Shown: positions 30,502-30,848 of the stretch, one piece after another
Layout of the letters: each line of letters begins with the position of its first letter
How positions within the stretch are numbered: position 1 is the first letter of the stretch
Source: an uncultured Brevundimonas sp.
Lineage (GTDB): Bacteria > Pseudomonadota > Alphaproteobacteria > Caulobacterales > Caulobacteraceae
Assembly: GCF_947305955.1 (NCBI RefSeq)
Contig: NZ_CAMZFB010000029.1
Span: 1 to 36,419 of the forward strand
DNA: 36,419 nucleotides
Direction of reading: 5' to 3'
Position numbers and translations under genes: made by a program
The notes under the pieces: generated by a model
What the model saw: the letters and a program-made list of their open reading frames with translations, nothing else
The model's database searches: none
What the model was told of the DNA's origin: nothing

Positions 30502-30848
30502 GACGGCCTCATAAACCCGTCTTAACGGGTTGCGAAGGGCCAGATCGGTCTCCGGCCGAGAAAGATGACATAGCAGCGATCAAACGTCCGCGTTCCCGTA
30601 ATGCCCGTACGGACATCAGGCTTTGTTAACGCCCTGCCCCTGTCCCAACGCCCGAAATGCCGCCAAGCTTCACCGAACACAAAAATTTTCGCAGACTCTG
30701 AATCCGCCAAAACCCTTATCCACCGGACTCTTGAGAGTCATGGAGATCAGCGTTTGACTCTTCGAAGAATCGGAAAACCGTTTTGATTACCAACCGTTAA
30801 CCACGATGACTCACGATGCGCCCTCAACACCACAGGGGCCGCGTATTC
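30502..30848. promoter_or_regulatory. Divergent murC-ccrM control region with seven GANTC sites
   Basis: 347 bp without a gene. GANTC sites lie at 30694, 30700, 30726, 30735, 30756, 30767 and 30808 (first base of each), all on the ccrM side. Two of them form the inverted repeat GACTCT-TG-AGAGTC (30726-30739). TTAACCA at 30797-30803 resembles a CtrA half-site. Near murC there is a perfect hairpin AACCCGT / ACGGGTT (30514-30520 / 30525-30531), 13 bp before its ATG. In Caulobacter, ccrM has a CtrA-driven promoter and two GANTC sites in its leader whose methylation lowers expression; seven is many more. Promoter positions themselves are not assigned. Confidence 0.7.

What the first reader, a model, noticed from the sequence alone, without database searches (positions are those of the whole stretch)
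30694..30812. Seven CcrM target sites packed in front of ccrM
Seven GANTC motifs fall in 119 bp. At ~65% GC, chance gives about one per 300 bp, and Caulobacter genomes carry fewer than that. Known Caulobacter ccrM has two such sites in its leader, used for negative feedback. One pair here is an exact inverted repeat around TG. The density suggests an amplified methylation switch, possibly read by GcrA or another methyl-sensitive factor, and it also lies upstream of murC, so peptidoglycan precursor synthesis could be tied to the same methylation state.
Basis: partly seen in the sequence, partly recalled or inferred. Interest (0 to 1): 0.75.

Follow-up and report, generated by a model that had tools for sequence, protein, structure and literature searches.

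The report
Methylation-sensor array controlling ccrM
In a Brevundimonas bacterium, seven target sites of the DNA-methylating enzyme CcrM are packed in front of the enzyme's own gene; its three closest relatives found keep five to seven of them and dense versions recur across Alphaproteobacteria, so the cell likely reads methylation there to switch the enzyme gene on and off, more elaborately than the two-site Caulobacter case would suggest.

Summary
In detail: seven GANTC sites at 30694-30812, directly before ccrM, against 1.06 per kb in 436 kb of the same genome, where the next densest 119 bp holds four. The organism is a Brevundimonas, not a Caulobacter. Of 128 genus genomes, three carry the array with identical spacing and one keeps five sites; 124 have 0-3 in any 119 bp. 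The four form one clade. In the three full arrays no GANTC-defining base varies (0 of 28) while spacers do (22 of 84), so the array is selected. Site 7 is older: 119 of 128 have TTAACC-N5-GANTC there, touching a predicted -10 box. Across the class, 24 of 56 genomes from other families have four or more sites in 200 bp, and 28 of 56 share a rigid TTGAC-N14-GANTCA...T element. Best reading: a sensor for CcrM autoregulation, likely off when fully methylated and on when hemimethylated. The murC link is not supported: 27 of 31 head-to-head murC-ccrM genomes lack the array. GcrA as main reader is weakened: three of four genomes without detectable GcrA keep a composite promoter. Effect and sign are untested.

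The parts
30694..30698 (.). GANTC site 1 (GACTC), -155 from the ccrM ATG
   Evidence: kept as GANTC in three of the four array species (GAGTC in two of them), not present in L084
30700..30704 (.). GANTC site 2 (GAATC), -149
   Evidence: kept in three of four array species
30726..30730 (.). GANTC site 3 (GACTC), -123; left arm of an exact inverted repeat
   Evidence: kept in four of four, N base C or G
30735..30739 (.). GANTC site 4 (GAGTC), -114; right arm of the inverted repeat
   Evidence: kept in four of four; in L084 the N bases of sites 3 and 4 are both swapped, so the symmetry of the two sites stays
30726..30739 (.). inverted repeat GACTCT-TG-AGAGTC
   Evidence: sequence
30756..30760 (.). 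GANTC site 5 (GACTC), -93, inside GTTTGACTCT, invariant in the four array species
30767..30771 (.). GANTC site 6 (GAATC), -82; the only site that fits YGAKTCK
30808..30812 (.). GANTC site 7 (GACTC), -41; genus-wide site that touches the predicted -10 box
   Evidence: TTAACC-N5-GANTC in 119 of 128 genus genomes
30797..30802 (+). TTAACC, CtrA half-site-like, 11 bp upstream of site 7
   Evidence: 119 of 128 genus genomes at this offset; the CtrA motif TTAA-N7-TTAA is from PMC4287350 passages; here the upstream half reads TTAC with a 6-base gap, so only a half-site is clear
30812..30817 (+). predicted -10 hexamer CACGAT (pattern CAnnnT)
   Evidence: 88 of 128 genus genomes fit TTAACC-N4-6-GANTCA...T; prediction
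30818..30822 (+). GCGCC, fits the SciP half-motif GCGNC
   Evidence: motif quoted in a PMC4287350 passage; match read by eye; not tested for significance
30716..30724 (+). TTATCCACC, DnaA-box-like; one base differs in one of the four array species
   Evidence: consensus recalled; function unknown
30849..31928 (+). ccrM, 359 aa, N6_N4_Mtase plus RAMA domains
   Evidence: Pfam; relatives
29062..30501 (-). murC, divergent neighbour; not judged part of the system

Best explanation
The seven GANTC sites are a selectively maintained array in front of ccrM that likely acts as a methylation sensor: full methylation by CcrM would shut the promoter, and the hemimethylation left by the replication fork would reopen it. 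Shown: the array exists; three species have it complete and a fourth has five sites; its GANTC-defining bases do not vary in the full arrays while its spacers do; site 7 sits in a genus-wide core beside a CtrA half-site-like TTAACC; dense sites and a GANTC at a fixed distance from TTGAC recur before ccrM across the class. Inferred: site 7 touches the -10 box, so methyl groups there could hinder sigma70 polymerase directly. Sites 1-6 lie upstream of the CtrA-like box and would set how strongly or how sharply full methylation turns ccrM off, by a reader not yet identified. The result would be a burst of CcrM after the fork passes, ended by CcrM's own product.
For: Selection: 0 of 28 GANTC-defining positions vary against 22 of 84 spacer positions in three species (p = 0.0016); 0 of 20 against 22 of 62 for the five sites shared by four species (one-sided p = 0.0007); 2 of 28 against 55 of 81 in four genomes whose ccrM arrays are in register (three named Asticcacaulis, one unnamed; p = 2e-8). 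One branch holds the four array species (99/93). Class-wide: mean 3.41 GANTC in the 200 bp before ccrM in 56 genomes against 0.39-0.71 for seven control palindromes. Same genomes, per 250 bp: ccrM 3.89 (n 28), gcrA 1.64 (n 22), recA 0.93 (n 27), dnaA 0.21 (n 28). TTGAC-N14-GANTC in 28 of 56, all 28 with the A and T of GANTCA...T; 2 at the neighbouring offset on one side, 0 on the other; 0 in the rest of those loci and 0 on the other strand. Precedent for the sign: a modelling paper states that C. crescentus ccrM is transcribed only from hemimethylated DNA (PMC2217572 passage); the A. tumefaciens gcrA promoter region with six GANTC is less active when methylated, also in E. coli (PMC11514494 section 25).
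Against: No expression or methylome data for this organism. Methylation activates other promoters (ftsZ, mipZ; PMC3708114 passages), so the sign could be opposite. Six of seven sites lie upstream of the predicted promoter. The rigid TTGAC-N14-GANTC form is absent before ccrM in the genus (0 of 128) and in other Caulobacteraceae examined (0 of 59). In 5 of 56 class genomes no GANTC lies in the 400 bp before ccrM, so the device is not universal. L084 lacks sites 1 and 2; with L084 included the seven-site test is not significant (5 of 28 against 28 of 84, p = 0.15), and core against N base is not significant either way (p = 0.2 and 0.055).
Confidence: 0.5

Rival explanations
1. GcrA-driven activation: methylated sites recruit GcrA with sigma70, so methylation turns ccrM up (positive or pulse-shaping feedback).
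For: GcrA prefers methylated GANTC and stimulates open-complex formation at methylated promoters (PMC3667746 passages; PMC7403470 passages). A GcrA gene is present in this genome. GANTC next to the -10 box suits an activator that binds sigma region 2.
Against: One of seven sites fits YGAKTCK; class arrays 62 of 201 against 55 of 192 elsewhere in the loci. Four of 29 genomes had no GcrA match at E 0.001 and none over the cut-off at E 10; three of these four fit TTGAC with a spacer GANTC and GANTCA...T, two at the exact N14 spacing and the third, a single-contig 100% complete genome, within the N12-15 pattern only. A diverged GcrA could be missed.
Confidence: 0.2
2. A site array for another DNA-binding protein (MucR-like or unknown) that shields GANTC from CcrM, leaving some sites unmethylated as a heritable mark.
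For: MucR shields specific GANTC sites in C. crescentus (PMC5172544 passages). The inverted repeat keeps its symmetry through paired N changes in L084. GAGTC-N6-GACTC pairs also stand upstream of ccrM in C. vibrioides L055 and L058 and in array-bearing relatives.
Against: No MucR site was tested here. Over 40 adjacent pairs 9-11 bp apart in the class, N complementarity is at chance (12 of 40, expected 0.28), so symmetry is not general.
Confidence: 0.12
3. Shared control of ccrM and murC, so that peptidoglycan precursor synthesis follows methylation.
For: murC is divergent and 274-347 bp from ccrM in the four array species.
Against: 27 of 31 head-to-head genomes lack the array. The conserved block abuts ccrM, and most of the murC-side sequence is not conserved (by eye). 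Other arrays occur with no murC found nearby.
Confidence: 0.05
4. Passive accumulation: GANTC is avoided in genes and tolerated between genes, and the cluster is chance.
For: GANTC is on average more than 1.5-fold over-represented between genes in orders with a CcrM homolog (PMC3973325 passages).
Against: Array spacing identical in three species; GANTC-defining bases conserved against spacers; control palindromes and control genes show no such density.
Confidence: 0.03

Closest known systems
Caulobacter crescentus ccrM promoter (CtrA-activated, two GANTC, active when hemimethylated)
   Same: Same gene, GANTC sites in the promoter region, CtrA half-site-like box nearby; L055 (C. vibrioides) shows two sites at -36 and -29 on the window's numbering.
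   Different: Seven sites instead of two near the start (L055 has four within 300 bp), six of them upstream of the CtrA-like box; only site 7 has a counterpart in most of the genus.
Agrobacterium tumefaciens gcrA promoter region with six GANTC, less active when methylated (PMC11514494)
   Same: Dense, over-represented GANTC before a cell-cycle regulator gene.
   Different: Different gene; the effect was measured there, here it is inferred.
GcrA-dependent methylated promoters (mipZ, podJ)
   Same: GANTC in the promoter region of cell-cycle genes.
   Different: Extended motif YGAKTCK not enriched; composite ccrM promoters occur in genomes without detectable GcrA.
ctrA promoters with up to five or six GANTC in Sphingomonadales and Caulobacterales (PMC8116508)
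   Same: Multiple GANTC within 300 bp of a cell-cycle regulator gene.
   Different: That count was of ctrA; no count for ccrM is in the passages seen.

Membership tests
CcrM-autoregulated ccrM promoter (C. crescentus type) | GANTC sites in the ccrM promoter or leader | tested here: met
   seven sites
CcrM-autoregulated ccrM promoter (C. crescentus type) | CtrA box (TTAA-N7-TTAA or half-site) at the promoter | tested here: inconclusive
   TTAACC at a fixed offset in 119 of 128; full spacing not seen in the window
CcrM-autoregulated ccrM promoter (C. crescentus type) | transcription restricted to the hemimethylated state | not testable with these tools
   needs reporters and synchronised cells
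GcrA-activated methylated promoter | extended motif YGAKTCK | tested here: inconclusive
   1 of 7 sites fits; genome background 53 of 409; no enrichment in class arrays (62 of 201 against 55 of 192)
GcrA-activated methylated promoter | GcrA encoded in the genome | tested here: met
   G000:C13, E 2.3e-48
GcrA-activated methylated promoter | GcrA occupancy in vivo | not testable with these tools
   needs ChIP
TTGAC-N14-GANTC ccrM promoter (described here) | TTGAC starting exactly 19 bp before a GANTC | tested here: not met
   0 of 128 genus genomes, 0 of 59 other Caulobacteraceae, 28 of 56 other families

The most novel reading that the evidence does not exclude
Alphaproteobacterial ccrM promoters carry a built-in, GcrA-independent methylation gate: a GANTC fused to the -10 box, often with a second GANTC in the 17-bp spacer and a further upstream array, that makes sigma70 polymerase itself read methylation; upstream arrays are gained and lost by lineage and tune the gate's sharpness. 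The two-site Caulobacter promoter is a reduced form.
Probability: 0.3. Interest if true: 0.78.

Novelty: new variant of a known kind. Interest (0 to 1): 0.62.

Why it matters
CcrM timing sets the methylation clock of Alphaproteobacteria, and in the papers seen its own control is described from a two-site promoter in one model species. A selected, clade-specific seven-site array and a rigid TTGAC-GANTC element in half of the sampled families make an open question directly testable: does polymerase itself read methylation, and does site number set the sharpness of the switch? The counts also predict which species should show strong CcrM feedback.

Tried and rejected
Considered and rejected. (1) A multicopy element: a search of the own genome found one copy of the 359 bp. 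(2) Control by murC. (3) GcrA extended-motif enrichment: none. (4) General inverted-repeat symmetry of neighbouring sites: at chance for 9-11 bp pairs; 12-13 bp pairs 6 of 10, too few. (5) Helical phasing: 40 adjacent spacings of 9-11 bp in the class set, but the periodicity score had no clear maximum and no null was run; part of the peak comes from the composite promoter. (6) A second TTGAC promoter at site 5 of the window: no conserved -10 seen by eye. (7) A plasmid search matched only the murC and ccrM ends of the query.

Limits. One search kept the best 80 of 575 loci. The class set is 56 of the 95 out-of-genus genomes with any match; the rest, mostly weaker matches, were not read. The family set is 59 of 123 non-genus genomes with a match, taken by me down the list with an eye to genera. 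The genus set is 128 of 131: dropped were one without a match, one with only a weak match and one with only the C-terminus. The tree uses the 45 closest of 127 sequences, 291 nt each, with one long branch. In the paired test partial and second gcrA matches were left out and dnaA starts are approximate. Start codons were set by alignment to the window's CcrM. The pattern with a spacer GANTC allows N12-15, the rigid one N14 only. Of the papers, PMC7987155 (section 11 part 1 of 2) and PMC11514494 (section 25) were read by section; the others cited were seen as passages. The original C. crescentus ccrM experiments are known to me from recall and from those passages; Haakonsen et al. 2015 is not held. 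The DnaA consensus is recalled.

Full report
Observation. Seven GANTC sites lie at 30694, 30700, 30726, 30735, 30756, 30767 and 30808, that is at -155, -149, -123, -114, -93, -82 and -41 from the ccrM ATG at 30849. The gene product carries N6_N4_Mtase and RAMA domains. GANTC is scarce here: 54 in the window against 160 expected from shuffles, and 463 in 436,419 bases of the same genome, 1.06 per kb. The array is the densest 119 bp of that sample; the runner-up has four sites. The 359-bp region was found once in the genome.

Where it is. The closest named relatives are Brevundimonas, and records of that name share contig coordinates with members of the 131-genome genus set (for example B. lenta L022 with G025, B. 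aurantiaca L004 with G004; by eye). One member matches a record named Peiella (L027, G038), so the genus as held is slightly wider. The genome is a Brevundimonas in that sense, not a Caulobacter.

How old the array is. In 128 genus genomes with readable sequence before ccrM, the largest count in 119 bp is 7 in three, 5 in one, 3 in five, 2 in forty-two, 1 in seventy-three and 0 in four. The window genome, G034 and G053 have all seven with identical internal spacing; G122 has sites 3-7. These four form one branch of a ccrM tree (99/93, 45 of 127 sequences). G053 is the outermost of the four, so the array most simply arose once and G122 later lost sites 1 and 2 (inference).

Selection. Across the three full arrays, 0 of 28 GANTC-defining positions vary against 22 of 84 spacer positions (p = 0.0016). 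For the five sites shared by four species the counts are 0 of 20 and 22 of 62 (one-sided p = 0.0007). Where sites differ and stay GANTC, the change is on the free N base: site 1 C to G, and in G122 both N bases of the inverted pair at sites 3 and 4 are swapped. With the degraded sites of G122 included, the seven-site test is not significant (5 of 28 against 28 of 84, p = 0.15). In a separate set of four array-bearing genomes (three named Asticcacaulis records and one unnamed family member whose array is in register), 2 of 28 vary against 55 of 81 (p = 2e-8).

Site 7 is a different thing. In 119 of 128 genus genomes the same place reads TTAACC-N5-GANTC, and 88 of 128 fit TTAACC-N4-6-GANTCA...T, which would make a -10 box CAnnnT. 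In the window the predicted box is CACGAT at 30812-30817, sharing its first base with site 7. TTAACC resembles a CtrA half-site and GCGCC at 30818 fits the SciP half-motif, both as quoted for C. crescentus in PMC4287350 (passages). The upstream half of a full CtrA box is not clear here.

Class-wide picture. In 56 genomes from 56 other alphaproteobacterial families the 200 bp before ccrM hold on average 3.41 GANTC; seven control palindromes of the same make-up give 0.39-0.71. Twenty-four of 56 have four or more GANTC; with the seven control motifs only one genome reaches four, with one of them. In five of the 56 no site lies within 400 bp. In the same genomes ccrM has 3.89 sites per 250 bp (n = 28), gcrA 1.64 (n = 22), recA 0.93 (n = 27), dnaA 0.21 (n = 28); ccrM is higher than gcrA in 17 of 22, lower in 1 and equal in 4. 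In 28 of 56 a TTGAC starts exactly 19 bp before a GANTC; at -20 there are 2, at -18 none, at -17 one. All 28 also fit GANTCA...T. That geometry puts TTGAC(n) and CAnnnT 17 bp apart, a canonical sigma70 spacing (inference), with the GANTC touching the -10 box. A looser pattern, TTGAC-N12-15-GANTCA...T with a further GANTC in the spacer, fits 24 of 56. The rigid pattern is absent from the rest of those loci and from the opposite strand; TTGAC-N12-15-GANTCA is absent from coding and distal-upstream stretches, and from the ccrM upstream regions when GANTC is replaced by seven other palindromes. The rigid pattern was found in 0 of 30 gcrA, 0 of 30 recA and 2 of 29 dnaA loci and twice in 436 kb of the window genome; with A...T added it was found in none of these. 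It is absent before ccrM in the genus (0 of 128) and in other Caulobacteraceae examined (0 of 59); in the genus the TTAACC form stands instead.

Mechanism. Committed reading: a methylation sensor for CcrM autoregulation, with full methylation likely repressive. Support for the sign comes from elsewhere. A modelling paper states that C. [quoted passage not shown] A review says that the ccrM promoter contains two GANTC sites and ties hemimethylation after replication to increased ccrM expression (PMC10073500 passage). In A. tumefaciens the region before gcrA carries six GANTC and is less active when methylated, also in E. coli (PMC11514494 section 25). Against: methylation activates ftsZ and mipZ in C. 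crescentus (PMC3708114 passages). GcrA is less likely to be the main one: the extended motif is not enriched (62 of 201 array sites against 55 of 192 others; window genome background 53 of 409). Of four genomes without detectable GcrA three fit the looser composite promoter, two of them also the rigid one; the single-contig complete genome fits only the looser one. A fifth genome, G256, has only a partial GcrA match below the cut-off and fits the looser composite. A diverged GcrA could be missed.

murC. Of 31 genus genomes with murC head-to-head within 350 bp, 27 have no array. The conserved block abuts ccrM, not murC (by eye). Named Asticcacaulis arrays have no murC in the roughly 4 kb read on each side.

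Known or new. Multiple GANTC before ctrA across orders (PMC8116508 passages), before gcrA in A. tumefaciens, and intergenic enrichment of GANTC (PMC3973325 passages) are in print. Brilli et al. 2010 counted sites in promoters of cell-cycle genes and wrote that no control could be derived from genes with more sites (PMC2877005 passages); its tables were not seen. In eight searches of the held library and the passages read, I saw no description of ccrM arrays beyond two sites or of the TTGAC-N14-GANTC element; most subscription papers are not held. I therefore file this as a new variant of a known kind.

Noticed in passing
17148-17218: Four GANTC in 71 bp, the second densest cluster in the sample. 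Two of them (17187, 17205) are in the arms of an inverted repeat AGATTCGGC...GCCGAATCT between two minus-strand reading frames, so a hairpin or terminator may explain part of it.
   Followed up: partly
L446 (dnaA locus of the same genome), about 250-300 bp before dnaA: Four GANTC within 48 bp, possibly part of an origin region.
   Followed up: no
30716-30724: TTATCCACC, a DnaA-box-like word kept in the four array species except for one base in one of them; role unknown.
   Followed up: no
L055, L058 and L034, L040, L229, L261, L263, L268, L269: GAGTC-N6-GACTC inverted pairs upstream of ccrM in C. vibrioides and in array-bearing Caulobacteraceae, echoing the window's inverted pair at sites 3 and 4.
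   Followed up: partly
G312 (L256 and L370): No GANTC in the 400 bp before ccrM but six in 250 bp before gcrA, as reported for A. tumefaciens gcrA: the array may sit on the other partner of the circuit there.
   Followed up: no
L080 (Parvibaculum sedimenti): Eight GANTC within 300 bp before ccrM.
   Followed up: no
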